From Lachnospiraceae bacterium (GTDB lineage Bacteria; Bacillota; Clostridia; Lachnospirales; Lachnospiraceae): a stretch of 64,000 nucleotides of DNA. Below are positions 34,962 through 56,364 of this stretch, in pieces. A program made the position numbers and the translations under genes. The stretch covers positions 62,001-126,000 of the forward strand of contig JAAUZD010000043.1 of assembly GCA_014804785.1 (NCBI GenBank). Reading direction: 5' to 3'. Below the pieces are notes generated by a model. That model saw only the letters and a program-made list of their open reading frames with translations, searched no databases and was not told where the DNA came from. Positions within the stretch are counted from its first letter, which is position 1. Every line of letters starts with the position of its first letter.

Positions 34962-36404
34962 ATGGTCTTGTTTGTGTCAATGATTTTTCCCGCTTTTTTG
35001 GGAGTGGTTGTGGCATTGTTCTTTTTGCTACCTGTAAAATGGCGTCCAACTATTCTTCTCTTTGCAAGTTATGTGCTTTGTGCATGGATCGATCTATGGG
35101 CATTACTGGTTCTCGTAGTGTTTTCCTTCAGCACCTGGGTGGCAGGAAGAAAGCTTAAAAAGCTGCTGATGATGGGGAAGAAGAGAGCAGGGAAGATTTA
35201 CACGGGAATCGTGGTTGGATTTTATATTTTCATATTGTGTTCTTATAAATATGTGCCATATTTTATGAAATATGCCGGTTTCACTCAGCTGTCGCAGGTA
35301 GGTCTGTTAAGAAATATGGTAATGCCCGTGGGGCTGTCTTTCTATTTGTTTCAGGCAATCGGTTATCTGACAGATATTTACAAAGAAAAAAGCCAGGCGG
35401 AAAAAAACTTTATATACCTGAGTTGTTATCTTGCGTTTTTTCCCAAACTTGTGAGCGGACCCATCCTGCGGGAACAGGATTTTCTGCCACAGCTTAGAAT
35501 GCTTGATAAAGTGACATTTAAAGACAGGGGCAGACTGTCCACTGCATTTACTTATATGCTATGGGGCTACTTTATGAAAATGGTGGTTGCTGACAGGCTG
35601 GCTGTGATGGTAAACCAGATTTTTGCAAGTCCGGAATTGTTTGACAGCTTCTGGCTTATCATAGGAGTCTTCTTCTACACAATTCAGATTTATTGCGATT
35701 TTGCGGGGTACTCTTATATTGCAATAGGCTGTGCCAGAATCTTTGGAATTCATCTGACGGAAAACTTCAGGGCGCCTTATCTTGCATCGGATATTACGGA
35801 GTTCTGGCGGAGATGGCATATTTCTTTAAGCACATGGCTCAGGGACTACATTTATATCCCATTAGGAGGCAACAGGAAAGGGGTTGCCAGAAAATGCATC
35901 AATACCATGATTGTATTTCTGGTATGCGGGATGTGGCATGGAGCTGGATTCCATTTTGCAGCATGGGGACTACTGCATGGTATCTATTCGGTAATTGAGG
36001 CATTCGTGAGACAGAAAGGATGGAAAGTGAGGGGAGGAAAAGCCATTACGTTTGTAGAGGTCGCTTTCGCCTGGATTTTCTTCAGGGCAGATGACTTTGG
36101 AGCAGCGGTTCTTTATATTATCCAGATGTTTACTTCTGGTTTTCACCCGGAAGGGTGGAGCCAGATAATGGAAATTTTACAGCTGAGCACAGTGGAGATT
36201 ATTTTGATTATTCTGGGGATTACAGTGATATGGCTGGTGGATGAATTTTGCGGCAGGAAGAAACTTCAACTGCCAGTGCTGATACAGCATAAAGAAAATG
36301 CAGTAAGATATTTGGTTTTTTATCTGCTCATCATCACAATCTTTGTATTTGGAATATATGGACCCGGGTACCATGCGGAACAGTTTATTTATATGCAGTT
36401 TTAA
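34962..36404 (+). CDS. MBOAT-family membrane O-acyltransferase (first copy)
   Basis: 480 residues, about ten membrane helices. The AlgI/DltB/PatA-like signature is clear: SFYLFQAIGYLTDIY, KLVSGPILREQDFLPQ, FAGYSYIAIGCARIFGI, FWRRWHISLSTWLRDYIYIP and CGMWHGAGFHFAAWG with the catalytic His. It moves acyl groups across the membrane onto a glycan through an extracytoplasmic partner, here probably the SGNH-like protein 24 bases downstream. GGGAGG at 34954-34959 is close to ATG 34962; TTG 34968 is a possible alternative start. It opens the first acylation/CotH/VTC/DUF4956 group. Confidence 0.92.
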   Translation: MVLFVSMIFPAFLGVVVALFFLLPVKWRPTILLFASYVLCAWIDLWALLVLVVFSFSTWVAGRKLKKLLMMGKKRAGKIYTGIVVGFYIFILCSYKYVPYFMKYAGFTQLSQVGLLRNMVMPVGLSFYLFQAIGYLTDIYKEKSQAEKNFIYLSCYLAFFPKLVSGPILREQDFLPQLRMLDKVTFKDRGRLSTAFTYMLWGYFMKMVVADRLAVMVNQIFASPELFDSFWLIIGVFFYTIQIYCDFAGYSYIAIGCARIFGIHLTENFRAPYLASDITEFWRRWHISLSTWLRDYIYIPLGGNRKGVARKCINTMIVFLVCGMWHGAGFHFAAWGLLHGIYSVIEAFVRQKGWKVRGGKAITFVEVAFAWIFFRADDFGAAVLYIIQMFTSGFHPEGWSQIMEILQLSTVEIILIILGITVIWLVDEFCGRKKLQLPVLIQHKENAVRYLVFYLLIITIFVFGIYGPGYHAEQFIYMQF

Positions 36405-36427
36405 ACGGCAGGACAGGGAGCGGTAAA

Positions 36428-37447
36428 ATGAAAAAGAATTTACTGAGGGCAGGATTTGTAGTGCTGTTGGCGGTAACAATTTATATTTGCGTAAGCATTC
36501 TGAGCATAAAGTCCCAGCATGGAGTGAACCAGAGTGCCGGAATGTACTGGCAGCCCAAGAATTCCATTGACGTAGTGATGATGGGAACCAGCCATGTCCA
36601 CTGCGGTATTAATACTGGGCTTTTATGGGAAAAATATGGTATTGCTTCTTATGATTATAGCTGCGCGGAACAGCCCCTCTGGATGACTTATTACTATTTG
36701 AAAGAACTGTATAAATATCAGACGCCGGAAGTCATTGTGCTGGATGTATATGCACCTGCCAGATTTAAGGATGATTACCAGTATGACTGGATGGCAGAGA
36801 ATGTTTATGGAATGAGATTTTCCATCAACAAAGCGCAAATGCTGTCCGTCAGCGTGGAGCCGAAAAGAATTTCTCAATATTTTCCTGATTTTGCAGTGTA
36901 CCACAGTAGATATGATGATCTGGAAGAGGAGGACTTTAATAGCTTTTTCTGGGACAGTCATGAGAAAGAAGCTTTTAAAGGATATACACCTTATTGGGAT
37001 AGAAGACCGCAGCGGGAGGTTGAGGTCTCTGAAGAGCGGAATGATGGGATGACAGATAAATCCGAGAAGTACTTGCGGGAAATTATTTCTTATACAAAGA
37101 AAAAGGGCAGTGAGTTGGTGCTGATTGTGACACCTTATATTATGACGGCTGATGATAAACGGACTTATAACAGGATCGTAGAAATTGCGGCGGAAGAAGG
37201 GATTACGTTTATCAACTACAACGAATATTATGAGTCAATTGGTCTTGATTTTGAAACCGATTTTAATGATGAGTCACATCTGAACTATTGGGGAAGCTGC
37301 AAATTTACGGATTATCTTGGAGAGTTCTTAAGCTATTATGGTGAAATACCTGACCGAAGAGGACAGGAGGAGTATGAATCATGGGATGATAATGCACGGA
37401 TGATACGGGAAGAACTAAAAAGGTATGAAGATGGGACGTTGGAATAG
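36428..37447 (+). CDS. Membrane-anchored SGNH-like (AlgJ/AlgX-type) protein
   Basis: 339 residues with an N-terminal signal anchor (about 7-27). DVVMMGTSHVHCGINTGLLW matches block I of the SGNH/AlgX fold, with Ser followed by His as in AlgJ/AlgX proteins, and FNDESHLNYWGSCKFTDYLG near the C-terminus carries the Asp and His. It lies directly after the MBOAT gene, the classical AlgI-AlgJ or PatA-PatB pairing, so it likely transfers the acyl group to the glycan outside the membrane. No lipobox. The acceptor is unknown. Confidence 0.8.
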   Translation: MKKNLLRAGFVVLLAVTIYICVSILSIKSQHGVNQSAGMYWQPKNSIDVVMMGTSHVHCGINTGLLWEKYGIASYDYSCAEQPLWMTYYYLKELYKYQTPEVIVLDVYAPARFKDDYQYDWMAENVYGMRFSINKAQMLSVSVEPKRISQYFPDFAVYHSRYDDLEEEDFNSFFWDSHEKEAFKGYTPYWDRRPQREVEVSEERNDGMTDKSEKYLREIISYTKKKGSELVLIVTPYIMTADDKRTYNRIVEIAAEEGITFINYNEYYESIGLDFETDFNDESHLNYWGSCKFTDYLGEFLSYYGEIPDRRGQEEYESWDDNARMIREELKRYEDGTLE

Positions 37448-37470
37448 GAGTTTTTAGTGGTTATCCGGAC

Positions 37471-37503
37471 GCGCTGACAAGATAGTTATTCTCCTGTCAG
37501 CGC
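37471..37503. terminator. Hairpin after the SGNH-like gene
   Basis: Perfect 9-base arms (37471-37479 and 37495-37503) with a 15-base loop and no T-tract. It may be a weak terminator or RNA processing site between two units. Confidence 0.4.
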
Positions 37504-37538
37504 TGCACTTCTGGTTAGGCTGGTAAAAATAGCAAAGG

Positions 37539-37567
37539 TTGCCTTTTCGTGGTGCATACTTTATAAT
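37539..37567 (+). promoter_or_regulatory. Sigma-A-type promoter of the first CotH-VTC-DUF4956 unit
   Basis: TTGCCT (37539-37544), 17 bases, consensus TATAAT (37562-37567), 33 bases before the CotH start. Confidence 0.7.
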
Positions 37568-37600
37568 AAGTGAAGCAGATGGAAGGTGGTTTATTGCGGG

Positions 37601-39487
37601 ATGCATCATAAGAAAGGAACGGGGAACAGAATACATGTGTTTGTGATTGTAAGTGCTTGTCTTATGCTGGTATTGCTGTTGGCAGGTTCTTATTTACAGA
37701 CAGATCATGAAAAGGAATTTATAGACGGACTATTCTTTGAATGCACATTAGATGGGCAGAAAATACAGATTGGATTGTGGCAGGACGAAGAAGATGAAAT
37801 GTATTATCTTTTCCTGCCTTCCTGTTTTGCGGGGAGAGATAAGGAATTTACCTTGGCGTATAAGGGAAGTAAGGGAAGAATGAAAATAGATGGAATATCC
37901 TATAAAGCAGGTGAGGTCTTTACAGAAGCAGGTGAGGAAGAAGTCCATCAGATAGAACTGATAGGTCTGTTTGGAAATACTTTTATGGACAAATCTTTCA
38001 GGGTGCTTGTTTCTGAAAATCTTCCGGTTATGATGTTTACGGTGGAAGATGAGGAAGATTTATTGGATATGAATGAATTTGAGAATAAGAAATACATTGA
38101 AACCGGTGCCATGATGATGTTGGATGCTGAAGGAAAATCCGTGTGCAGTGAAAAGCTGGATAAATTCAGGGTAAGGGGAAATCTGACTGCGACCTTGGAT
38201 AAAAAACCCTTTACTTTTTCTTTTGAGCAGCCGATCGGTTTATGCGGGATGGATCCGGCAGTCAAGTGGAATCTGCTGGCAAATGCAACAGATGGATCTT
38301 ATATCAGAAATAAAGTGGTGCTGGATCTGGCGAATAAAAGTATAGATTCTTATGAGCCGGATGGAGAATTTGTTGAAGTGTACTTAAATGGACAATACAT
38401 GGGGCTGTATTTATTGACAGAGGCAGTGGAAATTGGGGAGAACCGGATAGAAATTGAGCCTGAAAGCAGCTGGTTTTTAGAAATGGAGCTGGATTTCCGT
38501 CTGGAAAAGGATGAGCCTTATGTGGTGTCGGAGAGAGGACAGATATTTGTAATCAAGGATACAGAGGAAGTGTCGGAAGATGAAAAGGAACAGATTCAGA
38601 ATATGGTGGATGATGTTGAGAGCGCTTTGTTTGCAGAGAATGGTGTCAGCAGCATAAGTGGGAAAAAGCTATCTGAACTGCTTGACATAGAATCCTGGGC
38701 AGAGTTGTGGTTGATTCAGGAAATATCGGGAAATCATGATACGGGGATAGCCAGTACGTTTGCATATGTGATGGATAAGGGAAAACCGCTTTTGTACGCC
38801 GGTCCGGTATGGGATTTTGACGGGACAATGGGAAATGTCAATACAGCCATGTTTGGGAATCCGGCGGCGCTTACAACTTCTATTGAAGAATCACGCCCAC
38901 GGGGAAATGCCAATCAGAATAGATGGCTGGCAGCCATGTATCAAAATGATGAATTTAAGATGGCGGTAGAAAATAAATACACCAGCCTGTTCCGGGAAAA
39001 TCTGGAGGAAATGCTGAATGTAGAAATAGATGTCTTAGCAGAAAAAATCAGCCGCCCGGCAACGTTGGATGCCTTTCGATGGCATGACGAGCGGCTTGGA
39101 TGGATGTTCGTTTTGCCGGAGGACTATTCTATTCCTGATGAAGGCGGCTATCGCCGATTTGCAGGGCTGGAAAGACAGATCGATATGGTAAGGAATTTCC
39201 TGGCGGAAAAGAAAGATTTTCTTGACAAGCTTTGGGTAGAACATGCTGATTTTTGTATTGTAGAAGTGAAAAATGAGTCGGTTATATTAAATCAGGATTA
39301 TAATCAGACGGTTTATTTCTGGGTGGAAAGAGGAACCCCGATTTTGGGACTTTCGCAATTTGAATCAATAAGCGGGGAGAATTTTTATTACGTGGATGCT
39401 GACACGAAAGAAATCATCACAGACGGCACCGTCGTTTGGGAGGACCGGGTGCTGGAAGGCATTTGGGAACAAGAAGGAGAACCATAA
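37601..39487 (+). CDS. CotH-family kinase-like protein, membrane-anchored (first copy)
   Basis: About 628 residues. A signal anchor (about 10-32) is followed by a beta-rich region and then the CotH fold: VRGNLTATLDKKPFTF, NATDGSYIRNKVVLDLANK, VEVYLNGQYMGLYLLTEAVE and GPVWDFDGTMGN, the last with the metal-binding Asp. CotH is an atypical protein kinase known from Bacillus spore coat; family members here probably face the outside. GTG 37586 overlaps the ribosome site GGAAGG, so I use ATG 37601 with moderate certainty. Its stop codon directly abuts the TTG start of the VTC gene. A second, shorter copy is at 47268. Confidence 0.88.
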   Translation: MHHKKGTGNRIHVFVIVSACLMLVLLLAGSYLQTDHEKEFIDGLFFECTLDGQKIQIGLWQDEEDEMYYLFLPSCFAGRDKEFTLAYKGSKGRMKIDGISYKAGEVFTEAGEEEVHQIELIGLFGNTFMDKSFRVLVSENLPVMMFTVEDEEDLLDMNEFENKKYIETGAMMMLDAEGKSVCSEKLDKFRVRGNLTATLDKKPFTFSFEQPIGLCGMDPAVKWNLLANATDGSYIRNKVVLDLANKSIDSYEPDGEFVEVYLNGQYMGLYLLTEAVEIGENRIEIEPESSWFLEMELDFRLEKDEPYVVSERGQIFVIKDTEEVSEDEKEQIQNMVDDVESALFAENGVSSISGKKLSELLDIESWAELWLIQEISGNHDTGIASTFAYVMDKGKPLLYAGPVWDFDGTMGNVNTAMFGNPAALTTSIEESRPRGNANQNRWLAAMYQNDEFKMAVENKYTSLFRENLEEMLNVEIDVLAEKISRPATLDAFRWHDERLGWMFVLPEDYSIPDEGGYRRFAGLERQIDMVRNFLAEKKDFLDKLWVEHADFCIVEVKNESVILNQDYNQTVYFWVERGTPILGLSQFESISGENFYYVDADTKEIITDGTVVWEDRVLEGIWEQEGEP

Positions 39488-40183
39488 TTGGAACAGAAGC
39501 ATTACAGGCATGAATATAAATATCCTTTAACGCATGGACAAATCATGATAGAAGATGCTAAAATAAGCGCAGTCGCTATGAGAGATGTGCACGCAGGGAA
39601 GGACGGTTTTTATAACATCAGAAGTTTATACTTTGATGATTATGAGAATAGTTGCTACATGGACAATGAAAATGGTGTGGACAACAGAGAGAAGTATAGG
39701 GTGCGTATCTATAATCATCAGACAGAGCGGATCAGCTTGGAATTGAAGCAGAAAATACGTGGAAAGACAAGTAAGAGTTCCTGTCTGATTACAGAGTCCC
39801 AATGCAGGCAGCTTATGAGCGGCATTATGCCGAATGATATACAACCAGATCAGCAGGTGCTGCGCAGACTGTCGCTTCTGATGGCAGTGCGCATGATGAA
39901 GCCCGTGATCATTGTGGATTATGACAGAGTTCCTTATGTGTATAGGCAGCAGGATGCCAATGTCAGGGTCACTTTCGACAGTAATATTACTTCCGTGAGC
40001 AATGTGCAGTCATTTCTGGATGAAAAAATATGCGGAAGGGGAGTACTGCCGATAGGATGGGCGCTTATGGAAGTGAAGTTCGACAGTTTTTTGCCGGATG
40101 AAATATATAATCTTCTGCAGCTTGACGGGTTGTCGGCAAGTACATTTTCAAAATACTATCTTTGCAGAAAATTTAAAGGATGA
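39488..40183 (+). CDS. VTC-domain (polyphosphate polymerase-type) protein, first copy
   Basis: 231 residues starting at TTG, 8 bases after AAGGAG and immediately after the CotH stop. RHEYKYPLT, RSLYFDDYEN, REKYRVRIYN, SLELKQKIRGKT, VTFDSNI and LMEVKFDS line up the basic and acidic tunnel residues of the VTC/CYTH-like fold, which in yeast Vtc4 polymerises ATP phosphate into polyphosphate. The bacterial protein has no SPX or membrane part, so the following DUF4956 protein may supply the membrane component. Polyphosphate or another phosphate polymer as product is inference. Confidence 0.9.
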   Translation: MEQKHYRHEYKYPLTHGQIMIEDAKISAVAMRDVHAGKDGFYNIRSLYFDDYENSCYMDNENGVDNREKYRVRIYNHQTERISLELKQKIRGKTSKSSCLITESQCRQLMSGIMPNDIQPDQQVLRRLSLLMAVRMMKPVIIVDYDRVPYVYRQQDANVRVTFDSNITSVSNVQSFLDEKICGRGVLPIGWALMEVKFDSFLPDEIYNLLQLDGLSASTFSKYYLCRKFKG

Positions 40184-40234
40184 CGCAGTGCTGTTGCGCA
40201 TAAAGGAAATACCATAGAAAGGCAGGATAATAAA

Positions 40235-40909
40235 ATGAGTTTTTCGGATATATTTAAAAAGGATTTTCTGGCATCTTATACCAGTGAGAATATCAGCGTA
40301 CTGCATATAGCCTCCGTGCTTCTGATTACGGCAATCATTGCATGCTATATTTTTATGGTCTACAGGATTATCACTAAAAAGACATTCTATTCAAAAAATT
40401 TTAATATTTCATTGGCGGCACTTGCCGTGATTACAGCAGGGATTATTCTGGCAGTGCAGTCCAGCATTGTTATTTCTTTAGGTATGGTAGGCGCCCTTTC
40501 CATTGTGCGTTTTCGCACAGCCATTAAGGAACCCATGGATTTGTGTTTTATGTTCTGGTCTATTGCAGTGGGAATCTGCTGTGGAGCTCATATGACTGAG
40601 GTTGCGGTGGTACTTTCTCTGGTACTCACTATTTTGGTAATGATACTCGACAGACTGCCTGTAGGACGTGCGCCAATGATTCTGGTGGCGAATTTGAATG
40701 AATCAAAAAAAGAGCCGGTGTTTACGCAGAAAGTTGGCGAATATTGCAAATACTATAAAGTGAAATCGAGAAATGTTGTTTCGGGAAAGTGCAATCTGGT
40801 TATAGAGGTCCGTGCCTTAAAGGAATATGAAATGATGCAGGAACTTGAAAATCTGGAAGGGGTGGAGAGTGTTTCCCTGGTGTCACATGACGGAGAGGTG
40901 ACCTTTTGA
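40235..40909 (+). CDS. DUF4956 membrane protein, first copy
   Basis: 224 residues. Three or four membrane helices fill about 20-145; the core SSIVISLGMVGALSIVRFR and then TAIKEPMDL is the DUF4956 hallmark, with conserved Arg residues inside an otherwise hydrophobic region. The last 75 residues form a soluble alpha/beta tail. Function is unknown; the constant pairing with a VTC protein suggests a channel or membrane partner for a phosphate polymer (inference). The paralogue at 49521 is almost identical in the core. Confidence 0.88.
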   Translation: MSFSDIFKKDFLASYTSENISVLHIASVLLITAIIACYIFMVYRIITKKTFYSKNFNISLAALAVITAGIILAVQSSIVISLGMVGALSIVRFRTAIKEPMDLCFMFWSIAVGICCGAHMTEVAVVLSLVLTILVMILDRLPVGRAPMILVANLNESKKEPVFTQKVGEYCKYYKVKSRNVVSGKCNLVIEVRALKEYEMMQELENLEGVESVSLVSHDGEVTF

Positions 40910-40941
40910 TTGACGCCCTGTTTATAAAATGATACTATAAT
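40910..40941 (+). promoter_or_regulatory. Possible promoter of the radical SAM gene
   Basis: TTGACG (40910-40915) directly after the DUF4956 stop, with overlapping -10 candidates TACTAT (40933-40938, 17-base spacer) and TATAAT (40936-40941, 20-base spacer). Confidence 0.4.
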
Positions 40942-40993
40942 ACAGTTAGGAATTCATTTGAGAACATTATGTTTGAGATAAAGGAGACGAATC

Positions 40994-41974: not shown

Positions 41975-41993
41975 TTGAAATACAGGTAATGAG

Positions 41994-42084
41994 GGAGCGG
42001 AAGGCACTGTCAAGGCGCTCTGCAGCCCGGCACAGATAAAAACTATGTCGGGTTGCAGAGCGCCTTGACAGTGCCTTCCGTTCC
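41994..42084. repeat. Long near-perfect inverted repeat between convergent genes
   Basis: Arms of 37 bases (41994-42030 and 42048-42084) pair with only G:U-type differences; the 17-base middle can extend the stem by a few pairs. It lies between the stop codons of the radical SAM gene and the convergent oxidoreductase. It could be a bidirectional terminator, but the length is far above normal and T-tracts are missing, so a small dispersed element (MITE/REP-like) is possible. Confidence 0.8.
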
Positions 42085-42105
42085 TTGCGAAGACTATTCA
42101 TATAA

Positions 42106-43894: not shown

Positions 43895-46800
43895 ATGAAA
43901 AACGTAAAGAAAAGAAAAATTGCAGGTATTAGTGTGGGAAGTTTCCTAATTGTTTTTGCCTTGATTTGGTTATGCCAGGCAGTTACCAAAAATGTGGCAG
44001 TTATGAATACACAGGATGGAGAAAAAGACTCCTTTGTCATTTATAATTTGAAGGTGTGTCATGTGCAGAATCCTATAGGGATTGACGAAGAGACGCCTGT
44101 GTTCAGCTGGTGTATGGAAAGTGAGAAAAGAGGGGCGGCGCAGAGCGCGTATCGTATTTTGGTGGCAGATGGCAGGGAGAACCTTGATGGTGGGCAGTTC
44201 CTTTGGGACAGCGGTAAAATTATTGACTCGGTGTCGGCAGGGATTTTGTATGAGGGGGAAAGACTTGAGCCCAGGAAGAGGTATTTTTGGCGGGTGGAGG
44301 TCTGGAACGAAGATAATCAATCGTATGTGTCAGGAGAAGAGGCATGGTTTGAAACCGGGCTTATGGGCGAAGGAATGCCGGGGGCAAAATGGATTTCTGC
44401 AGAGCAGGAGAAAATAGATGAGGCAGTGGACGAGGAGGCGTTGGCCTACGCTATTAATTATCAGATGGAGGTAGACGGCACAACGGCGGGCTTTGTTTTT
44501 GGGGCTGGGCAGGGGCGCTATGGAGATTTGTATTTATGTGAGATTAAGAACCAGCAGGAGGAGGTCTGCTTTCGCCTGAAGCATATGGATGGAGGGACAT
44601 TTCTTTCGGAGGAGGAAGTGGATATTTCCCATTGCATTCCGGCGGGGGAGATACTTTTTGATGTGAGAATCATGGTAGAGAAGGAAAAGGCGGAGGTAAT
44701 CATCAATGGAACACAGGCAGGAGAATTCGTAATCGAGCCTACCCCGGTAGAGAGCATCGGCTATTACAAGAGCAGAGGTGTGTCCTATGCATGGATTGAT
44801 GATATCAGTGTCTGTGCTGGGACAGGCGAGATGATTTATGAAGAAGACTTTGAAGATGAAGATACAATTTTTGCACCTTATCATGTAGCAGTAGAGAGTG
44901 GAAGACTGAAGGTTGGGAGCGGTCTTATGCTCACCGGGGGATTTGAAGAACCGGCGCCTTTATTTAGGAGAGAGTTTATTTTGCAGGATAAAGAAGTGGA
45001 CAGTGCCAGAGTATATATGACGGCGCTGGGAAGTTTTGCACTGTCGATAAACGGAGAGAGGGTTTCGGAGGATTATTTCAGCCCTGGCAAGCTTGCTTAT
45101 AACAGGCAGCTTTCTTATGTGACTTATGATGTGACAGAATTGCTGAGGAAGGGAGAAAATAATGCCATGGGAATCATCCTGCTGCATGGCTGGTATGACA
45201 GGGCAGTGGGATATCCGGAGATATGGAATCCCTGGGGAGATAAAAATGCGCTTTTGGGTAAGCTGGTGATAGAATACGAAGACGGCAGTGTGGAGGAAGT
45301 CGTGACAGATGAAGAGTTTTTATATTGTCTGGACGGTCCTGTAAGGACGGACGATCTGTACCAGGGGGAATTTTATGATGCCAACTGTGAAAAGGAGGGA
45401 TTTGACACGGCGGGATTTTCGGAAGAGGGATGGCAGCAGGCAGAAGAAAATGCAGTGAGGGAGGAATACTTATCCATTCCCCTTGTAGGTAAGAAGAATG
45501 AATCGATTGCCTGCGTGGAGGTCCTTACGCCGGTCAGCGTTTCTGAGCCGGAAGAAAATATCCTTGTGTATGATTTTGGACAGAACTTTGCGGGAACATG
45601 CAGAATCAAAGTGAAGGGAGACGCGGGCAAAGTCATTACCCTTAGGTATGGAGAGGCAGTTAATGAAGAAGAACTGAAAAATAAGGACGATGAGGTTGGA
45701 ACTATCTGGACGGAGAACCTGTTTACTGCGGAAGCAACTGATTATTATGTTTTGAAGGGAGATGATAAGGGGGAGATTTTTGAACCCGAGTTCGTCTTTC
45801 ATGGATTTCGGTATTTGCAGGTCAGTGGCATTGGTGAAGGCATTTCGATAGAAGATGTGGAGGGACTTGTCTTATCCTCCGATCTGGAACAGACGGGAAG
45901 TTTCAGCTGCTCTAATAAAATGCTGAACAGGTATTATCAAAATACCATTTGGAGTCAGAGAAGCAATTTCATGGATAACCCTATGGACTGCCCACAGCGG
46001 GATGAGCGCCATGGATGGGCTGGGGACGCACAGATCTTTTCCCTTACTGCGTCCTATCATATGGACACTTACAATTTCTACGAAAAATATCTGCGGGAAT
46101 TAAGGCTGCTCCAATCAGAGGGCGGTTCGTTTACAGATATGGCGCCCAGAAATTTCGGCACAGATTGGGATGGCACTGGTGGTGCATCAGCGAATAACTG
46201 TTGGGGAGATGCCGCAGTGGTCATTACCTGGAATCTTTATACCCAGTATGGCGATAAAATTATCCTGAGAGAAAATTATGAAGCGCTTTGCAGCTGGGTA
46301 GATATGCTGGCTGCTACCAGCGAGGACTATATCAGGGACTGGGGAGGTTATGGAGATCATCTGTCGCTGGAGGATACGCCCTCTGATTTGTCGGATACGG
46401 CATGGTGTGCGCACGCAGCAGATTTGCTTTCCCGCATGGCAAAAGTGCTGGGAGAGGAAGAAGATGCAGTGTATTATGAGCAGATATATGAAGAATTTAG
46501 AAAGGCATGGCAGGGGCGGTATATCCTTTCTGATGGGACGACTACATGCGATACACAGACTTCTTATGTGTTGGGACTTGCATTTTCACTGTTTCCCGAG
46601 GAACTGGAAGGGGCAGCCGCAGAGCGTCTGCATCTGCTTGCACAATACAGTGACTATCACATCAAAACAGGTTATTCGGGGATTGGCTATTTACTGCCGG
46701 TTCTTTCGCATAACGGTATGAAGGAGACCGCCTATGAAATGCTGCAGAATGAAGAAGGTCCCTCTTTGCTTTATGCGGTGGCGCAGGGAGCAACTACGAC

Positions 46801-47242
46801 ATGGGAATCTTTTTTTGCATATCAGGAGGAAGAGGGAGGCTATCGGCTTGACGGCTCGTTAAATCATTATGCTTATGGAACACCGGCAGGATGGCTTTAC
46901 ACGGATGTGCTTGGAATACAAAGCGATGAAGCAGACCCCGGATTTAAGCATATACTTCTTGAGCCGCTGACCGGTGGAGGATTAAGTTTTGCAGAAGGAA
47001 GTTATACTAGTACTTATGGAAAAATTAGTGTAGAATGGAAAGAAACAGAAACCGGATATGAATACCGGTTTGAAATTCCTGCTAATACGACGGCAACTTT
47101 GAGCTTGCCCAGCAGTGAAAATATGTATTTTGTAGATGAAAAGCCGGCAGAAGATGCGGACGGCGTGGTATTTCTTGAAAGAGATGAAGAAAAGGTCAAG
47201 TATGAATTGGTATCAGGAACCTATTGCTTTGTCTCAAAGTAA
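43895..47242 (+). CDS. Alpha-L-rhamnosidase (GH78), N-terminally anchored
   Basis: 1115 residues. A signal anchor (about 12-30) is followed by the Fn3-like N-domain (PIGIDEETPVFSW), a lectin-like insert, the Bac_rhamnosid_N domain (about 345-430, ARVYMTALGSFALSINGERV), the next beta-domain (VYDFGQNFAGT) and the (alpha/alpha)6 barrel. DCPQRDERHGWAGDAQIF at about 697-714 is the GH78 catalytic-acid signature; TTTWESFF and NHYAYGTPAGWLYTDVLGI near the C-terminus complete the site. It cleaves terminal alpha-rhamnose. Finding it anchored inside a rhamnose-making locus suggests trimming or turnover of the cell's own polymer, or scavenging. The CotH gene follows after 25 bases. Confidence 0.92.
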   Translation: MKNVKKRKIAGISVGSFLIVFALIWLCQAVTKNVAVMNTQDGEKDSFVIYNLKVCHVQNPIGIDEETPVFSWCMESEKRGAAQSAYRILVADGRENLDGGQFLWDSGKIIDSVSAGILYEGERLEPRKRYFWRVEVWNEDNQSYVSGEEAWFETGLMGEGMPGAKWISAEQEKIDEAVDEEALAYAINYQMEVDGTTAGFVFGAGQGRYGDLYLCEIKNQQEEVCFRLKHMDGGTFLSEEEVDISHCIPAGEILFDVRIMVEKEKAEVIINGTQAGEFVIEPTPVESIGYYKSRGVSYAWIDDISVCAGTGEMIYEEDFEDEDTIFAPYHVAVESGRLKVGSGLMLTGGFEEPAPLFRREFILQDKEVDSARVYMTALGSFALSINGERVSEDYFSPGKLAYNRQLSYVTYDVTELLRKGENNAMGIILLHGWYDRAVGYPEIWNPWGDKNALLGKLVIEYEDGSVEEVVTDEEFLYCLDGPVRTDDLYQGEFYDANCEKEGFDTAGFSEEGWQQAEENAVREEYLSIPLVGKKNESIACVEVLTPVSVSEPEENILVYDFGQNFAGTCRIKVKGDAGKVITLRYGEAVNEEELKNKDDEVGTIWTENLFTAEATDYYVLKGDDKGEIFEPEFVFHGFRYLQVSGIGEGISIEDVEGLVLSSDLEQTGSFSCSNKMLNRYYQNTIWSQRSNFMDNPMDCPQRDERHGWAGDAQIFSLTASYHMDTYNFYEKYLRELRLLQSEGGSFTDMAPRNFGTDWDGTGGASANNCWGDAAVVITWNLYTQYGDKIILRENYEALCSWVDMLAATSEDYIRDWGGYGDHLSLEDTPSDLSDTAWCAHAADLLSRMAKVLGEEEDAVYYEQIYEEFRKAWQGRYILSDGTTTCDTQTSYVLGLAFSLFPEELEGAAAERLHLLAQYSDYHIKTGYSGIGYLLPVLSHNGMKETAYEMLQNEEGPSLLYAVAQGATTTWESFFAYQEEEGGYRLDGSLNHYAYGTPAGWLYTDVLGIQSDEADPGFKHILLEPLTGGGLSFAEGSYTSTYGKISVEWKETETGYEYRFEIPANTTATLSLPSSENMYFVDEKPAEDADGVVFLERDEEKVKYELVSGTYCFVSK

Positions 47243-47267: not shown

Positions 47268-48815
47268 ATGAAAAAAGTGTGGATGATTGCAATATCTGTA
47301 ATCTTTTTGTGCATTTACTTATTGAGTGATAAAATAGCAGATAAGTTCAGCAGTGAGGTGATGAGTGCAGAAGTGCTTTCCATGGAAGAAATCGATCTTC
47401 TGTGTGAGGGGAAAGAGGATGCATTCATGGAACCGGAGATTACCTTAAATGGTGGGAAGATTGCCTATGACAGTGAGCAGAATTTATTGCTGGTACCGCA
47501 GAACTTGGGAGAAGAGCGCTTTGACGGCATTTTGCAGGTGCCGGACGGAAAGCTGTACTTTCTCAAAGACGAAGCGCTGGATGACAGAGAGAGTACCTTA
47601 AGGGATAGCAGGATGCTTCATCTGTTCTGGATCAGGGACACACAGTGCTGGATGTACAATGTATATTTTACCGGAATGCCTGTTGTATCCATTACAACCG
47701 GGCAGGAGGCAGATGCGGATGGAATTTCAAGGGGAGAAATGTGGGTATATGACCAATATCACAGCGCGGCTCAGTATCAAAGTGCAGAGTGCTCCTGGCA
47801 TTTAAGGGGTGCAACGACTTTAAACTATGAGAAATCCAGTTACCGTCTGACACTTACCGACAGAAAATTGTCCTTTTTGGGGATGCGTAAGGATGATGAC
47901 TGGATCCTCCATGGGCTTTATGATGATGACGGATTGATTCATAATAAATTGTCCTATGCCGTGTGGCAGGAAATTGCCGCCAGTAATCATGTGGATTATG
48001 ATGAGGGAATCCACATGGAATACGTGGAGCTGTTTATGGATGACAGTTATCTTGGGGTGTATGGACTGTCGGAGAGAATAGATAAAAAAGCGTTGCAATT
48101 AGGGAATGGAGATATTCTGTATAAGTGCCGTGACCAGGAGAATCCGGGCGGGGATGATTTTTACAGTGAACTTACGGAGGATATGAATCCTACTTTTGTT
48201 TTAAAATACCCCAAGGAATTTGATATGGAGGACTGGGAGCCTTTAAAACAGTGGACATCCATGTACTGTTTCGGAGAGATTGAGGATTATGAAACGGCAA
48301 AGGCAATCCTGAATATGGAAAATGCAGTTGACTACAATTTGTTTAATCTGCTGACATGTGGTATGGATAATATCATGAAAAATATATATTTCCAGGCTGA
48401 TTATCAGGGAAACGACAGCTTCCAGTTCATTAAAATCCCGTGGGATCTCAACATGACATGGGGAAATTCATGGATTGACGATTATGATTGTAATTTCAAC
48501 CGGTATCAGGAAAAGAATCTTGACAGCATAGGGGGCTGGACGCCGGATATGGAGGAATTGTATAAGTTGAATCCGGAAGAAATCGGTACACTTTTGGCGG
48601 ACAGGTGGCAGGAACTGCGAGAGAATATTATTACGAAAGAAAAATTGTGTGCAAAGGTGGATGCAGAGCTTGCATATCTCTATGCTTCTGGGGCGTATGT
48701 AAGGAACCAGCAGAAGTGGCCGCCTAAGGGGGATTATTGGCAGAATGATTATATTTATGAATATATCGACAAGAGGATTGATTTCCTGGATGAGTATATT
48801 GGACAGATGAGGTAA
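47268..48815 (+). CDS. CotH-family kinase-like protein, membrane-anchored (second copy)
   Basis: 515 residues, about 110 shorter than the copy at 37601, mostly at the C-terminal end. A signal anchor (about 3-20) precedes the CotH core: HLRGATTLNYEKSSYRLTL, LYDDDGLIHNKLSYAVW, VELFMDDSYLGVYGLSERID and KIPWDLNMTWGN. The last motif has Asn where the first copy has Asp (WDFDG), a variation also seen in the wider family as I recall it. It is probably extracytoplasmic. It shares an operon with the rhamnosidase upstream and the VTC and DUF4956 genes downstream. Confidence 0.88.
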   Translation: MKKVWMIAISVIFLCIYLLSDKIADKFSSEVMSAEVLSMEEIDLLCEGKEDAFMEPEITLNGGKIAYDSEQNLLLVPQNLGEERFDGILQVPDGKLYFLKDEALDDRESTLRDSRMLHLFWIRDTQCWMYNVYFTGMPVVSITTGQEADADGISRGEMWVYDQYHSAAQYQSAECSWHLRGATTLNYEKSSYRLTLTDRKLSFLGMRKDDDWILHGLYDDDGLIHNKLSYAVWQEIAASNHVDYDEGIHMEYVELFMDDSYLGVYGLSERIDKKALQLGNGDILYKCRDQENPGGDDFYSELTEDMNPTFVLKYPKEFDMEDWEPLKQWTSMYCFGEIEDYETAKAILNMENAVDYNLFNLLTCGMDNIMKNIYFQADYQGNDSFQFIKIPWDLNMTWGNSWIDDYDCNFNRYQEKNLDSIGGWTPDMEELYKLNPEEIGTLLADRWQELRENIITKEKLCAKVDAELAYLYASGAYVRNQQKWPPKGDYWQNDYIYEYIDKRIDFLDEYIGQMR

Positions 48816-48820
48816 GGTGC

Positions 48821-49501
48821 ATGGATTACAGGCATGAACTGAAGTTTTTGGTTTCGGATGCAGAACTGGAATTGATACGGTATCGGTTAAAGCTGTTGAT
48901 GCGGCAGGATATTCATCAGAAGGAAGGCGGATATGCAGTAAGAAGTCTGTACTTTGATGATTTTTATGACTCCTGTATGCAGGAAAACGAGAATGGAATC
49001 GACAACAGGAGAAAGTACCGGATTAGGATTTATGACGGTGATGATACCGTTATTAAACTGGAAAAGAAAATAAAATGTCGGGGTATGACCAGAAAGATCA
49101 GCAGGGAGATTTCCCGGGAGGACTGCCAGACATACATGTCCGGCAGAGCGCCCTGTTTAAATCAGGGCAGTACGCAGCTGGAAAAGGAATTGTACGCGGA
49201 AATAAAAATGTGCGGTATGCACCCCGTAACGGTTGTGGAATATGAGAGGACGGCTTTTGTAGAGCCGAGGGGAAATGTCAGGATCACATTTGACAGAAAC
49301 ATCAGCTGCAGTGAGAATCTGGAACATTTTTTGGATCAGAAGATTTTGACAGTACCTCTTCTGCCGGAAGGGAATCATGTACTGGAAGTGAAATATGATG
49401 AGCTGCTTCCCGATTATATTGCACAAATACTAGAATTGGGGACGCTTCAAAGAACCGCTTTTTCTAAATACTATTATTCAAGAAATTACAAACATAATTA
49501 G
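48821..49501 (+). CDS. VTC-domain (polyphosphate polymerase-type) protein, second copy
   Basis: 226 residues, paralogue of 39488. MDYRHELKFLVSD, RSLYFDDFYDSC, RRKYRIRIYDGD, IKLEKKIKCRGMTRK, VRITFDRNI and VLEVKYDELLPDYI carry the same tunnel residues, including the E-x-K near each end. Five bases separate it from the CotH stop. With CotH and DUF4956 it repeats the order of the first module exactly. Product and substrate are not established for bacterial copies in this context. Confidence 0.9.
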   Translation: MDYRHELKFLVSDAELELIRYRLKLLMRQDIHQKEGGYAVRSLYFDDFYDSCMQENENGIDNRRKYRIRIYDGDDTVIKLEKKIKCRGMTRKISREISREDCQTYMSGRAPCLNQGSTQLEKELYAEIKMCGMHPVTVVEYERTAFVEPRGNVRITFDRNISCSENLEHFLDQKILTVPLLPEGNHVLEVKYDELLPDYIAQILELGTLQRTAFSKYYYSRNYKHN

Positions 49502-49520
49502 GAATCCGGAGGATATCAAA

Positions 49521-50195: not shown

Positions 50196-50230
50196 AAGTT
50201 TTAAGCGGTTGTAAAAACAGGAGGTCGTAA

Positions 50231-51793: not shown

Positions 51794-51810
51794 GAGAAAA
51801 GAGGAAGCAG

Positions 51811-52896: not shown

Positions 52897-52913
52897 TTTG
52901 GAGGAGAAAATTT

Positions 52914-53720
52914 ATGTATGGAATATTTATGGAAAGTCTGGTCATCTTGAAATTATATACAGGACTGAAATTTCTGCTTCTGCTTACTGCAATTGCGTGG
53001 CTTTTTCTTTTCATTACAGAGAAAGACAGAAAAATTCGTATTCTTCTGGTGTATGCGCCGATCATAACGATTTTGCTGTTCCTTTTTCCGGTGAGCAGAA
53101 AGGTGTTTGTCGCCACAGGACTGGACGGGGAAACGTACTATCGTATCTTGTGGACGATTCCCATGGGAATTATTTTTGTCTATGCCGCATGCCGTCTTTT
53201 TGCTGCACATAGAAGGATTGGGCTGATTATTTCAGCAGCCCTTATTATGCTGTGTGGAAGCCTTGTATATAAGAGTCCCTATATTTCTAAAGCAGAAAAT
53301 CTATATCACATACCGGATACAGTAGTCAGAATCTGTGATCTGATTGAACCGGATCATGAGGGGGAAAGGGTATCGGCAGTGATGCCTGCCGATTTGATTC
53401 ATTTTGTAAGACAATATAGCGCTGCCATCAACATGCCTTATGGAAGGGAGATGCTGGTGGGACAGTGGGATTATTATAATGCAGTATACGAAGCAATGGA
53501 AAAGCCGGAAGTAGTCAATATGAGAGAACTGCTTGAGGCAACCAGAACGGAGAACTGCAGGTATATTGTTATGGCAGAAAATAAGCAGACGGATGTAGAT
53601 CCGGTATCCTGTGGTCTGTTGCTTCTGGACAAAATCGATGGCTATCGTGTTTATGAGGATCCAGTCACGGCGGAGGCGTTAGAGCAGCAGCGGCAGGAAC
53701 ACTATGGGGATGAGGAATAA
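52914..53720 (+). CDS. Membrane protein, likely second part of the DUF6077-like pair
   Basis: 268 residues, five or so helices to about 115, then a soluble domain of 150 residues outside the membrane. GGAGGAG lies 6 bases before ATG 52914, so it has a proper start; no single-base change obviously joins it to 52896. The topology, helices followed by a soluble end, is the missing C-terminal part of the preceding protein, so they may form one split enzyme. The stop overlaps the next start by 1 base (TAATG). Confidence 0.65.
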   Translation: MYGIFMESLVILKLYTGLKFLLLLTAIAWLFLFITEKDRKIRILLVYAPIITILLFLFPVSRKVFVATGLDGETYYRILWTIPMGIIFVYAACRLFAAHRRIGLIISAALIMLCGSLVYKSPYISKAENLYHIPDTVVRICDLIEPDHEGERVSAVMPADLIHFVRQYSAAINMPYGREMLVGQWDYYNAVYEAMEKPEVVNMRELLEATRTENCRYIVMAENKQTDVDPVSCGLLLLDKIDGYRVYEDPVTAEALEQQRQEHYGDEE

Positions 53721-55174
53721 TGCTGTTTAATTCTTATGATTTTATATTTCTATTTTTCCCGATCACCCTTTTGGGATTTTTCATCCTGCAAAGGGCGGGG
53801 AGACGGCTTTGGAATGACACGCGCCGCATCAGCCTTGAAAATGCATTTCTGTTAGCGGCATCTTTTGTGTTCTACGGATGGTTGCACCCGGAGTATATAC
53901 CGGTTCTGATAAGCAGTATGGCAGTGAATTACGGACTTTTTGTGCAGATGGAAAAAACACAGCATAAAAAAAAGATGCTGGCAGCAGGACTTGTATTCAA
54001 CATAGGTGCGCTTGCCTTATTCAAATATGTGGGAACAGGCGATTTTCTACCTCTGGGCATCAGCTTCTTTACCTTTACCCAGATTGCGTTTTTGATGGAA
54101 AGTTACCGGGGAAATCTGAAAGAGGTGAGTGCCCTTTCCTATGGATTGTATGTAAGCTTTTTCCCAAAGATAATTCAGGGGCCGATTGCACTGCCGGGGG
54201 AGATGCTTCCCCAGTTTGAGAAGGCAGAAAAAAGGGTGGATTGGGAGAGGATTTACAGGTGCCTTTACCTGTTCGTGCTGGGTCTGTTCAAAAAAGTGCT
54301 GCTGGCGGATACGCTGGGAAGGGCTGCGGATTTCGGCTATGCCAATCTGCCTTCCTTGAACTCAGTGGACGGTATAATCGTCATGCTTTCTTACACGCTA
54401 CAGCTTTATTTCGACTTCAGCGGATACTGCGATATGGCGATGGGGATTGCCGGCATGCTTGGAATAGACCTGCCTCTTAATTTTGACTCGCCCTATAAAG
54501 CATCCAATATCATGGAATTTTGGAAAAGATGGCACATCACCTTGACCCGCTTTTTCACCAGATATCTATATATCCCCCTTGGAGGAAATCGAAAAGGAAG
54601 GGCAAGAACCTACCTAAACTGCCTGATTATCTTTCTGGTAAGCGGCATCTGGCACGGCGCTGGATGGCAGTTTATCATCTGGGGACTTTTACATGGAGTA
54701 CTCTATGTATTTACCAGGGCATGGATGGATTGGCGTGCAGGTAAAGGAGAAAAACGTCAGGGAAAGAGCAGAGTCCTGCATGACATCAGCGTATTTCTGA
54801 CCTTTTTGTATGTAAACATTGCCTGGGTTTTCTTCAGAGCGCCTTCCGTCGGAGATGCGCTGGGACTACTTAGAACCATCTGTTCTTTTCGCTTTGGCAG
54901 AGTCAACTGGGACTTGGCGAGTTGCTTCAATTTAGATGAGTTCTGGTATGTAATCAAAGTGGCTGGGATAGACAGCTGGCAGTATGCCCATTACATTCTC
55001 ATGGCAGTTATCATAGCCGCAATGTTGGCTTTAGTGTTTTTGGGTAAAAATTCAGTCGAGGCAGCAAAGAAGGTAAAACCGGGAGTAGCAAATACAATAT
55101 TTATGGCAGTCTTGTTTGTATGGAGCGTCCTCTCCTTCACGGGGGTAAGTTCCTTCTTGTATGTGAATTTTTAA
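53720..55174 (+). CDS. MBOAT-family membrane O-acyltransferase (second copy)
   Basis: 484 residues. The N-terminus MLFNSYDFIFLFFPIT is the AlgI/PatA start; GISFFTFTQIAFLMESYRG, PKIIQGPIALPGEM, FDFSGYCDMAMGIAGMLGI, FWKRWHITLTRFFTRYLYIP and GIWHGAGWQFIIWG (catalytic His) give all family blocks. It is a paralogue of 34962 in a different sub-branch, judged by the N-terminus. It is coupled to the membrane protein before it, and its likely acceptor-side partner is the SGNH-like protein 69 bases downstream. Confidence 0.92.
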   Translation: MLFNSYDFIFLFFPITLLGFFILQRAGRRLWNDTRRISLENAFLLAASFVFYGWLHPEYIPVLISSMAVNYGLFVQMEKTQHKKKMLAAGLVFNIGALALFKYVGTGDFLPLGISFFTFTQIAFLMESYRGNLKEVSALSYGLYVSFFPKIIQGPIALPGEMLPQFEKAEKRVDWERIYRCLYLFVLGLFKKVLLADTLGRAADFGYANLPSLNSVDGIIVMLSYTLQLYFDFSGYCDMAMGIAGMLGIDLPLNFDSPYKASNIMEFWKRWHITLTRFFTRYLYIPLGGNRKGRARTYLNCLIIFLVSGIWHGAGWQFIIWGLLHGVLYVFTRAWMDWRAGKGEKRQGKSRVLHDISVFLTFLYVNIAWVFFRAPSVGDALGLLRTICSFRFGRVNWDLASCFNLDEFWYVIKVAGIDSWQYAHYILMAVIIAAMLALVFLGKNSVEAAKKVKPGVANTIFMAVLFVWSVLSFTGVSSFLYVNF

Positions 55175-55242
55175 CCTCCGCGGGCGACAGACTAGGGGAG
55201 GGGGAAGGTGTTTCATTAAGGGACAGTAATTGAAAGAAGAAA

Positions 55243-56364
55243 ATGATGAAGAATGATTATGCAGAGCAAAACATTAGGCCGAGAAAGAATACGTTTAGGC
55301 GGGCGGTCATGGGATTTGCAGCGCTGGTGGTTATGGCGTGCATTTTAGTGACGGCGCTGGTGGTTTATGTGGATCCCTTTTTCCATTACCATGCTCCTTT
55401 GGAAGGTTTCCCATATCTGGTGGACAATCAGTTGTCTCAGAATCCAGGAATGGCGGCGCATATGGAGTATGACAGCGTGATTCTGGGGTCATCTATGACG
55501 GTGAACTTCCAGACGGACTGGTTTAAGGAATTGATGGGGCTTCATACGATTAAGCTGAGTTACAGCGGGGCATTTCCCAAGGATCAGGCTAATATCATGG
55601 AAATTATATTTAAAAGTGATAATAACCAGGGAGAGAAACGAATTAAGAAGGTTTTTCTGGGTGTGGACGTCATTACTTATACGGGCAGTGTGGATGAGAC
55701 CAAATATCCCATTCCGGAATATCTGTATGATGACAGTTATTTTAATGATATTGCTTATGTGCTCAACAAGGATGTCGTGTTAAATTATGTTTTGCGTCCC
55801 ATAGCAGATCCGGATCCAACTGATTTGTCCAATGTGTATGCCAGTTGGTGGACGGAGGAATATTATAGTGAAGAGTGGGTGCTTCACAATTATACTTCTC
55901 CGCAGCAGGTAGCAGAGGAGACCCCGCCGGAAGCTTATTTGGAAGCAGCAAGGGTAAATTTGGAGACAAATATCTGCCCATATATAGAGCAAAATCCGGA
56001 AACCGACTTCGTGATTTTTTTCCCGCCTTACAGTATTTTGTTCTGGAATGATGTTCTGAAAGAAAATCATTTTGAGGCAACCATTGAGGAATATAGATAC
56101 ATTGCAAACAGGCTGAATGATTATGAAAACGTAGAGGTATATTTTTTCCCTGATCAGGAAGAAATCATCTGTGATTTAAATCATTATGCGGATTACAGCC
56201 ACTATCATCCCCGATATAACCGGTATATGGCGGAATGTTTTACAGATAAGAACTGTCTGGTAGCCAAGGAAGGGCAGGAGGGAATAGGAATAGATGAATA
56301 TCTTTTACACATGAGGGAAATTGCAGAAAGCTTTAATTACGAGGAACTGCTGTCGCGGAAATAG
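55243..56364 (+). CDS. Membrane-anchored SGNH-like (AlgX/DHHW-type) protein
   Basis: 373 residues. A signal anchor (about 20-43), then YDSVILGSSMTVNFQTDWF (block I Ser in GSS), VFLGVDVITYT, and ADYSHYHPRYNRYMAECF near the end with Asp and His. The layout matches the partner proteins of MBOAT enzymes. It is only distantly similar to the first partner at 36428. It should act outside the membrane on the exported glycan. The end of the gene forms one arm of a hairpin (56344-56382). Confidence 0.78.
   Translation: MMKNDYAEQNIRPRKNTFRRAVMGFAALVVMACILVTALVVYVDPFFHYHAPLEGFPYLVDNQLSQNPGMAAHMEYDSVILGSSMTVNFQTDWFKELMGLHTIKLSYSGAFPKDQANIMEIIFKSDNNQGEKRIKKVFLGVDVITYTGSVDETKYPIPEYLYDDSYFNDIAYVLNKDVVLNYVLRPIADPDPTDLSNVYASWWTEEYYSEEWVLHNYTSPQQVAEETPPEAYLEAARVNLETNICPYIEQNPETDFVIFFPPYSILFWNDVLKENHFEATIEEYRYIANRLNDYENVEVYFFPDQEEIICDLNHYADYSHYHPRYNRYMAECFTDKNCLVAKEGQEGIGIDEYLLHMREIAESFNYEELLSRK

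What the first reader, a model, noticed from the sequence alone, without database searches (positions are those of the whole stretch)
34962..56364. Duplicated MBOAT / SGNH / CotH / VTC / DUF4956 suite
Five families occur twice: MBOAT (34962, 53720), SGNH-like (36428, 55243), CotH (37601, 47268), VTC (39488, 48821), DUF4956 (40235, 49521). CotH-VTC-DUF4956 keep the same order in both modules, while the acylation pair is upstream of one and downstream of the other. From family knowledge, VTC proteins make polyphosphate, CotH is an atypical kinase and MBOAT/SGNH pairs O-acylate glycans. I infer an undescribed envelope system that phosphorylates or attaches a phosphate polymer to a glycan, with DUF4956 as membrane component. 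The paralogues have diverged outside their cores, so the copies may serve two polymers.
Basis: partly seen in the sequence, partly recalled or inferred. Interest (0 to 1): 0.82.

Follow-up and report, generated by a model that had tools for sequence, protein, structure and literature searches.

The report
Duplicated polyphosphate-linked exported-kinase module
A gut bacterium carries two diverged copies of a three-gene module (a polyphosphate-making type of enzyme inside the cell, a membrane protein, and a kinase-like protein outside), described before beside one biofilm polymer but found here in many other settings, raising the testable idea that polyphosphate serves reactions at the cell surface.

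Summary
Four of five duplicated families are there: MBOAT, CotH, VTC, DUF4956, with CotH-VTC-DUF4956 in the same order twice. The fifth ("SGNH") is not confirmed: the two proteins resemble neither each other nor any Pfam family above threshold. MBOAT/SGNH is not part of the system. The triplet is in print beside Gram-positive Pel operons; in Streptococcus intermedius, deletions of DUF4956 and CotH had effects, none being mentioned for VTC. New here: (1) in 299 genomes VTC and DUF4956 occur in the same 46, adjacent at 53 of 57 VTC genes, while PelF is found in only 4 of 155 fetched neighbourhoods, against a published statement that the trio was not found outside Pel loci; (2) CotH is one of several partners (Cthe_2159, LRR-LTD), often beside a two-component system; (3) CotHs in these loci carry an N-terminal export/anchor segment, four intact spore-type CotHs do not; (4) all 22 DUF4956-bearing spirochaete genomes hold VTC or PPK1, a link that weakens after tree correction. 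Best reading: polyphosphate made by cytosolic VTC is coupled through MgtC-like DUF4956 to exported proteins. That CotH uses it as phosphate donor is untested. The copies are not a recent tandem duplication.

The parts
37586..39487 (+). CotH1: N-terminal hydrophobic anchor, beta-rich 49-144, CotH kinase fold about 145-554, C-terminal beta domain 555-631
39488..40183 (+). VTC1: polyphosphate-polymerase-type triphosphate tunnel protein, cytosolic by prediction
   Evidence: PF09359 130 bits; 16 invariant columns in 47 sequences; profile hits yeast Vtc4 crystals at 1.7e-19
40235..40909 (+). DUF4956-1: MgtC-like membrane protein with C-terminal ACT/ferredoxin-like domain
   Evidence: PF16316 46 bits; AF2 pLDDT 84, pTM 0.66; hhalign to MgtC Prob 96.9, E 1.4e-10, controls negative
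47268..48815 (+). CotH2: CotH with N-terminal hydrophobic segment, WDLN motif
   Evidence: PF08757 112 bits; N-terminal 17-mer hydropathy 2.5; motif
48821..49501 (+). VTC2
   Evidence: PF09359 134 bits
49521..50195 (+). DUF4956-2
   Evidence: PF16316 42 bits; NCBIfam MgtC/SapB NF007431 at 5.1e-5, 23 of 214 bits, below cut-off (DUF4956-1 had no such match)
34962..36404 (+). MBOAT1: neighbour, not counted as part of the module
   Evidence: PF03062 102 bits; LTA_dltB 153.7 of 375 bits needed; survey
36428..37447 (+). SGNH-like 1: neighbour, fold not established
   Evidence: no Pfam match at 0.001; GDSL E 0.18
53720..55174 (+). MBOAT2: neighbour, not counted as part of the module
   Evidence: PF03062 115 bits
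55243..56364 (+). SGNH-like 2: neighbour, fold not established, not similar to 36428
   Evidence: no Pfam match at E 10
43895..47242 (+). alpha-L-rhamnosidase directly upstream of module 2, same direction, 25 bp gap (possible operon partner)
   Evidence: PF17389 315 bits; gap

Best explanation
The window carries two anciently diverged copies of a DUF4956-centred module. VTC, in the cytosol, makes polyphosphate from ATP (inferred from a complete set of conserved residues). DUF4956, an MgtC-like membrane protein with a basic, probably cytosolic face (RFRxxxK) and an ACT-like domain, works with VTC, by analogy as its membrane partner or exit (inferred). An exported partner (CotH kinase in this window, elsewhere Cthe_2159 or LRR-LTD proteins) acts outside on envelope material; here the likely target belongs to the surface-glycan locus around it (inferred from context). 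MBOAT and SGNH-like genes are neighbours from that locus, not parts. Shown: composition, conservation, co-occurrence, predicted topology. Inferred: polyphosphate synthesis, coupling across the membrane, substrate.
For: VTC and DUF4956 in the identical 46 of 299 genomes, DUF4956 within 1.5 kb and on the same strand at 53 of 57 VTC genes; VTC within 5 kb at 75 of 80 named DUF4956 loci. VTC residues complete. DUF4956 related to MgtC (controls 85); loops 44-56 and 92-100 net +3.1 and +2.1, the two others uncharged. 119 of 121 CotHs of 430 aa or more in these loci have an N-terminal hydrophobic segment, as have 22 of 27 Cthe_2159 proteins and 5 of 5 LRR proteins of one cluster; 4 of 4 intact spore-type CotHs do not. 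Spirochaetes: VTC or PPK1 in 22 of 22 DUF4956 genomes against 39 of 127 others; tree-paired 5.9 to 0, median p 0.03. Glycan genes near the window's clade; Pel genes at L163 and three more loci, one with PelG and CotH in one reading frame.
Against: In S. intermedius no effect on aggregation is mentioned for deletion of the VTC gene (SIR_1593), while DUF4956 (SIR_1592) and CotH (SIR_1594) deletions had one, with opposite effects on Pel amount (PMC12345266, passages only). 14 of 22 DUF4956 spirochaete genomes lack VTC, and its replacement by PPK1 is not significant on the tree (1.8 to 0 of 5 pairs, p 0.5). 5 of 80 named DUF4956 loci have no VTC within 5 kb, one of them at a contig edge. D385 and W409 of CotH are not among the conserved columns of the looser alignment. 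No transport by DUF4956 is shown; MgtC itself is not an established transporter (recalled). VTC-type folds can also hydrolyse triphosphates (recalled).
Confidence: 0.45

Rival explanations
1. Regulatory module: DUF4956 works as MgtC is reported to, as a regulator of phosphate or ATP physiology that reads polyphosphate or nucleotides through its ACT domain; CotH and other exported proteins are outputs, and nothing crosses the membrane through DUF4956.
For: MgtC homology and ACT-like C-terminus; neighbours outside the window's clade rich in response regulators (20 of 120 proteins) and histidine kinases (HisKA in 10 of 120); the S. intermedius DUF4956 mutant makes more Pel.
Against: No regulator gene was found among the window genes beside the two modules; DUF4956 tracks VTC one for one in the phylum sample and tracks CotH in spirochaetes, closer than a general regulator needs.
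Confidence: 0.25
2. One reading: one envelope system of MBOAT, SGNH, CotH, VTC and DUF4956 that decorates a glycan with acyl groups and a phosphate polymer.
For: All lie in one polysaccharide locus; in L072 an MBOAT-like/DHHW fusion sits beside VTC; Pel link in L163 and a PelG-CotH frame in L156.
Against: MBOAT within 10 kb at 2 of 53 VTC loci outside this genome and 1 of 80 named DUF4956 loci; this genome has 9 MBOATs; many loci lie beside a two-component system instead.
Confidence: 0.08
3. DUF4956 and CotH are the working pair (a membrane protein that positions an exported kinase or scaffold on the polymer machinery); VTC is a dispensable tuner.
For: DUF4956 and CotH (22 genomes each) share 19 of 149 spirochaete genomes; tree-paired 8.0 to 0, median p 0.008; directly adjacent without VTC in L166, L167, L168 and L182; S. 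intermedius phenotypes mentioned for these two genes, not for VTC.
Against: In the window's phylum sample VTC is never missing where DUF4956 is present (46 of 46 genomes), while CotH is missing in 9 of the 46.
Confidence: 0.22

Closest known systems
Gram-positive Pel accessory genes cotH-PPP-DUF4956 (PMC7112168; SIR_1594-1592 of S. intermedius, PMC12345266; passages read)
   Same: Same three families; the locus-tag order SIR_1594-1593-1592 is CotH-VTC-DUF4956. L163 (Cytobacillus) shows the Pel genes followed by this triplet.
   Different: None of 43 window proteins scanned matches PelF, PelG or DUF2194; two copies; the mBio 2025 authors did not find the synteny outside Pel loci, whereas a PelF model hits only 4 of our 155 fetched neighbourhoods.
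Yeast VTC complex (Vtc4 catalytic domain plus membrane parts)
   Same: VTC domain with the same conserved basic motifs; paired with a small membrane protein.
   Different: Pfam finds only the VTC domain in the window VTCs, no SPX; DUF4956 is MgtC-like, not of the Vtc1 type (yeast facts recalled).
Bacillus CotH spore-coat kinase (5jd9)
   Different: N-terminal hydrophobic segment and extra N- and C-terminal domains; the four intact spore-type CotHs examined are 352-364 aa, lack that segment and are not adjacent to VTC.
MgtC/SapB family
   Same: Membrane helices plus C-terminal ACT-like domain; profile homology over 193 columns. Already noted for SIR_1592 in PMC12345266.
   Different: Below the cut-off of the MgtC models; own conserved stretch SLGMVGALSIVRFRTAIK.

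Membership tests
Pel accessory triplet (cotH-PPP-DUF4956) | three genes contiguous, same strand, same order | tested here: met
Pel accessory triplet (cotH-PPP-DUF4956) | contiguous with pelDEADAFG | tested here: not met
   43 window proteins scanned with Pfam, no PelF (DUF3492), PelG or DUF2194 match; local PelF, PelG and PelADA models hit nothing in the window
VTC polyphosphate polymerase | Pfam VTC above cut-off and conserved basic tunnel-type residues | tested here: met
VTC polyphosphate polymerase | makes polyphosphate from ATP | not testable with these tools
   needs purified protein
CotH kinase | PF08757 above cut-off and CotH fold | tested here: met
   (fold modelled for CotH1 only)
CotH kinase | conserved catalytic-type residues D385 and WD410 | tested here: inconclusive
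   all invariant in 29 CotHs; in a looser alignment of 36 only D410 is. Their catalytic role is recalled, not from a call
CotH kinase | phosphotransfer activity | not testable with these tools
   substrate unknown
DUF4956 (PF16316) | above curated cut-off | tested here: met
   46.1 and 42 bits against 30.6
MgtC/SapB (PF02308, NF007431) | above curated cut-off | tested here: not met
   only sub-cut-off matches; distant homology by hhalign
DltB (TIGR04091) | above 375 bits | tested here: not met
   153.7 and 175.4 bits
SGNH/GDSL hydrolase | PF13472 above cut-off | tested here: not met
   36428: 12.8 of 32.9 bits; 55243: none; fold not tested

The most novel reading that the evidence does not exclude
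An extracellular kinase fed by polyphosphate: VTC (or PPK1 in some spirochaetes) makes polyphosphate inside, MgtC-like DUF4956 passes it through the membrane, and exported CotH uses it outside, where ATP is scarce, to phosphorylate envelope glycans or proteins. This would explain why genomes with a long CotH (frame over 450 aa) nearly always hold VTC-DUF4956 (36 of 37 in the phylum sample, my hand count, exception G072, one sub-cut-off match with a stop left out; VTC or PPK1 in 21 of 22 CotH spirochaetes) while spore-type CotH, in an ATP-bearing compartment, need not.
Probability: 0.2. Interest if true: 0.88.

Novelty: new variant of a known kind. Interest (0 to 1): 0.6.

Why it matters
How kinases outside the bacterial membrane obtain phosphate is an open question (recalled), and in the listings I saw no title or abstract assigning a role to bacterial VTC proteins (those papers were not opened). 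A module that ties a polyphosphate-polymerase-type enzyme to an MgtC-like membrane protein and an exported kinase makes both questions testable, and may be a clue to what MgtC-type proteins handle. It also widens the published view that the trio belongs to Pel loci.

Tried and rejected
Chance or annotation artefact: rejected by E-values and order. MBOAT/SGNH as parts: rejected by the surveys (the local MBOAT model was built from 5 sequences and may miss some, one search used Pfam; many contigs end within 10 kb). Recent tandem duplication: rejected; in the DUF4956 tree the copies sit in different supported subclades of a 53-row clade. Solved structure for the DUF4956 membrane part: no convincing match by sequence (best E 0.64); the Foldseek and VIA-align rows cover residues 145-224, so no statement on the membrane fold. 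VTC2 by single-sequence search of the PDB gave nothing; the profile did. Promoter/terminator scan: terminators 8 against 7.9 expected, promoters 30 against 23.7 +- 4.0; not used. A PelG model iterated drifted into CotH (through the L156 frame) and its counts are discarded; single-sequence PelG BLAST finds the same four loci as PelF. PPK1 as replacement for VTC in spirochaetes: 14 of 14 VTC-less DUF4956 genomes have PPK1 against 37 of 127 genomes without DUF4956, but on an rpoB tree of 130 of 149 genomes only 1.8 to 0 of 5 independent pairs, p 0.5; kept as a lead only. For that tree 7 genomes had no rpoB match (two of them DUF4956 genomes) and I left out 12 others (none with DUF4956, VTC, CotH or PPK1) because of the fetch cap; the first run held ten wrongly oriented rows and is replaced. 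In these counts one DUF4956 genome (G348) and one VTC genome (G449, without DUF4956) rest on sub-cut-off matches at E 0.001 or better. Rows left out of alignments as fragments, N-bearing, unparsed or near-copies: A1 uses 42 of 52 fetched DUF4956, A2 45 of 55 VTC, A3 27 of 33 CotH, each plus the two window copies; A4 uses 63 of 69 plus two.
Full report
OBSERVATION. Pfam assigns MBOAT, CotH, VTC and DUF4956 twice each, all above curated cut-offs. The copies are 40% (MBOAT), 41% (VTC) and 50% (DUF4956) identical; the CotHs are barely alike (24% over 96 residues, E 7e-4). The 'SGNH' pair is not confirmed: no Pfam match at E 0.001, a sub-threshold GDSL hint for one (E 0.18), and no similarity between the two. 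Inside the triplets genes are 0-51 bp apart. The second run begins with an alpha-L-rhamnosidase, and three genes (two without a Pfam family, one DUF6077) stand between DUF4956-2 and MBOAT2.

SURROUNDINGS. The window is a surface-polysaccharide locus: glycosyltransferases, nucleotide-sugar enzymes, a UDP-sugar dehydrogenase, NAD-dependent sugar dehydratases/epimerases, a PMT_2-type protein and DUF6056/DUF6077 proteins. None of 43 window proteins scanned is PelF, PelG or DUF2194. The genome has four VTC genes, three CotHs and nine MBOATs, five of these on this contig. A third CotH-VTC-DUF4956 set lies on contig C32 and a VTC-DUF4956-Cthe_2159 set on C20, whose DUF4956 was not found by the family search but clusters with the others.

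THE MODULE ELSEWHERE. In 299 genomes of the phylum, VTC occurs in 46 and DUF4956 in 46, the same ones (hypergeometric 2.8e-55, not corrected for kinship; 35 of 215 genera). DUF4956 lies within 1.5 kb on the same strand at 53 of 57 VTC genes. The four others: one with CotH in between (2.0 kb), one with both genes at contig ends, the C20 case above, and a shortened VTC in G270 with none found. CotH lies within 4 kb at 34 of 57. Cthe_2159-type proteins (16 in 15 loci) and an LRR or LRR-LTD cluster (5 loci) stand at many of the others. Of the VTC loci outside this genome, 2 of 53 have an MBOAT within 10 kb. PelF and PelADA models hit 4 of the 155 fetched neighbourhoods (L035, L156, L163, L164), which include 20 spirochaete stretches and many cut by contig ends.

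TWO KINDS OF CONTEXT. Neighbours of loci in the window's clade match glycosyltransferase 2 most often (10 of 120 proteins), with a few sugar-nucleotide and sugar-transferase genes; neighbours of the other loci match response regulators (20 of 120) and HisKA (10 of 120) most; in the phylum set response-regulator and histidine-kinase clusters occur in 25 and 24 of the fetched loci. L163 (Cytobacillus) is a Pel operon followed by CotH-VTC-DUF4956, and in L156 (Paenibacillus caseinilyticus) one 1035-aa frame matches PelG over 1-471 and CotH over 517-1034 (a single case, an assembly error is not excluded). So a glycan link is real for part of the family, not general.

COPIES. In a DUF4956 tree of 123 proteins both window copies fall in a 53-row, mostly Lachnospiraceae clade (support 100/99), but in different subclades: 49521 in an 8-row group (95/88), 40235 in a 32-row group (98/96). 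They are two old lineages, not a recent duplication. The relative L104 (96% identical at the query) has the same layout in the 12 kb held.

VTC. 16 columns are invariant in 47 sequences, among them K8, R67, R69, E81, K83, R143, R154, E189, K191 and S215, and the profile matches yeast Vtc4 crystals at 1.7e-19 over the same motifs. 2 of 126 VTCs have a membrane-like segment by my hydropathy rule, so VTC is taken as cytosolic.

DUF4956. The model (pLDDT 84, pTM 0.66) has helices of membrane length followed by a beta-alpha-beta-beta-alpha-beta domain that resembles ACT/ferredoxin-like domains (the MgtC C-terminal domain 7qa5 is Foldseek rank 32, E 0.013; no row reached E 0.001). Profile comparison with 17 MgtC proteins gives Prob 96.9, E 1.4e-10 over 193 columns and 96.2, E 2.8e-9 over 140; reversed, shuffled and unrelated profiles give Prob 4.2 or less. 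The MgtC Pfam model reaches 5 DUF4956 genes below its cut-off. R92, R94 and K98 are invariant in 65 sequences; loops 44-56 and 92-100 carry net +3.1 and +2.1, the other two loops none, which by the positive-inside rule places both basic loops and the ACT domain in the cytosol (inference). The MgtC/ACT reading was already made for the S. intermedius protein (PMC12345266).

SPIROCHAETE TEST. In 149 genomes: DUF4956 22, VTC 10, CotH 22, PPK1 55 (one DUF4956 and one VTC genome rest on sub-cut-off matches). 14 of 22 DUF4956 genomes lack VTC, which speaks against VTC being essential; all 14 have PPK1 (against 37 of 127 genomes without DUF4956; Fisher 2e-7). VTC or PPK1 is present in 22 of 22 DUF4956 genomes against 39 of 127, and in 21 of 22 CotH genomes against 40 of 127. 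On an rpoB tree of 130 genomes the link of DUF4956 to VTC-or-PPK1 holds at 5.9 to 0 pairs (median p 0.03), to CotH at 8.0 to 0 (p 0.008), to VTC alone at 5.0 to 0 (p 0.06), but PPK1 alone (2.9 to 0.3, p 0.4) and PPK1 among VTC-less genomes (1.8 to 0, p 0.5) do not reach significance.

LITERATURE (passages only, no paper read whole). PMC7112168 names cotH, polyphosphate polymerase, DUF4956 and DUF4832 as accessory genes of streptococcal and clostridial Pel loci. PMC12345266 deletes them in S. intermedius: the DUF4956 and CotH mutants aggregate over 50% less in 10% artificial sputum medium, the first with more Pel and the second with less; no change is mentioned for the VTC mutant; the authors did not find the trio outside Pel loci. 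PMC2879425 and PMC11677781 list VTC and CotH genes in a C. perfringens locus. In the listings of eight searches (open-licence PMC only; searches list 15 of 21 and 15 of 18) no title or abstract proposed polyphosphate as donor for CotH; most of those papers were not opened.

VERDICT. A real and widespread module in a setting not described in what I read, partly in print. The mechanism proposed is cytosolic polyphosphate synthesis coupled through an MgtC-like protein to exported partners (0.45). The bolder reading, polyphosphate as fuel of an extracellular kinase, is at 0.2 and directly testable.

Noticed in passing
G000 contigs C32 (L031) and C20 (L032): Third CotH-VTC-DUF4956 set followed by ABC-transporter-like genes, and a fourth VTC-DUF4956 pair with a Cthe_2159 gene, in the same genome.
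   Followed up: partly
L156:6152-9259: One 1035-aa frame in Paenibacillus caseinilyticus matches PelG (1-471, 40%) and CotH (517-1034, 46%): a possible natural fusion of the exopolysaccharide exporter with CotH, beside VTC-DUF4956.
   Followed up: partly
L116:4389-10364: IMSAGC_005, a near relative, carries VTC-CotH-DUF4956-CotH-VTC-DUF4956 in tandem; L120 likewise holds two triplets plus an extra DUF4956.
   Followed up: no
L072:4739-7252: An 837-aa protein with an MBOAT-like part (26.9 bits, just under the cut-off of 27) and a DHHW domain sits beside VTC: a possible one-piece acylation partner.
   Followed up: no
PMC2879425, CP4_0460-0465: Genes there called 'tubulin/FtsZ' (222-226 aa, membrane) beside VTC and CotH are probably DUF4956 proteins misnamed (inference from size and place).
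   Followed up: no
window 58308-60716: GH25 lysozyme-type protein with an acidic N-terminal repeat (EYDEIDDEDEYYEEDD) and a Pro-Thr linker.
   Followed up: no
window 27996-29036 and 56434-57474: Two GDSL-like proteins are paralogues (26%, E 1.5e-18): a true duplicated pair, unlike the SGNH pair of the finding.
   Followed up: partly
L171, L172, L173 (spirochaetes): DUF4956 directly beside CheR/CheD-like genes (my reading of the sequences) and arrays of three or four CotH genes, without VTC.
   Followed up: no
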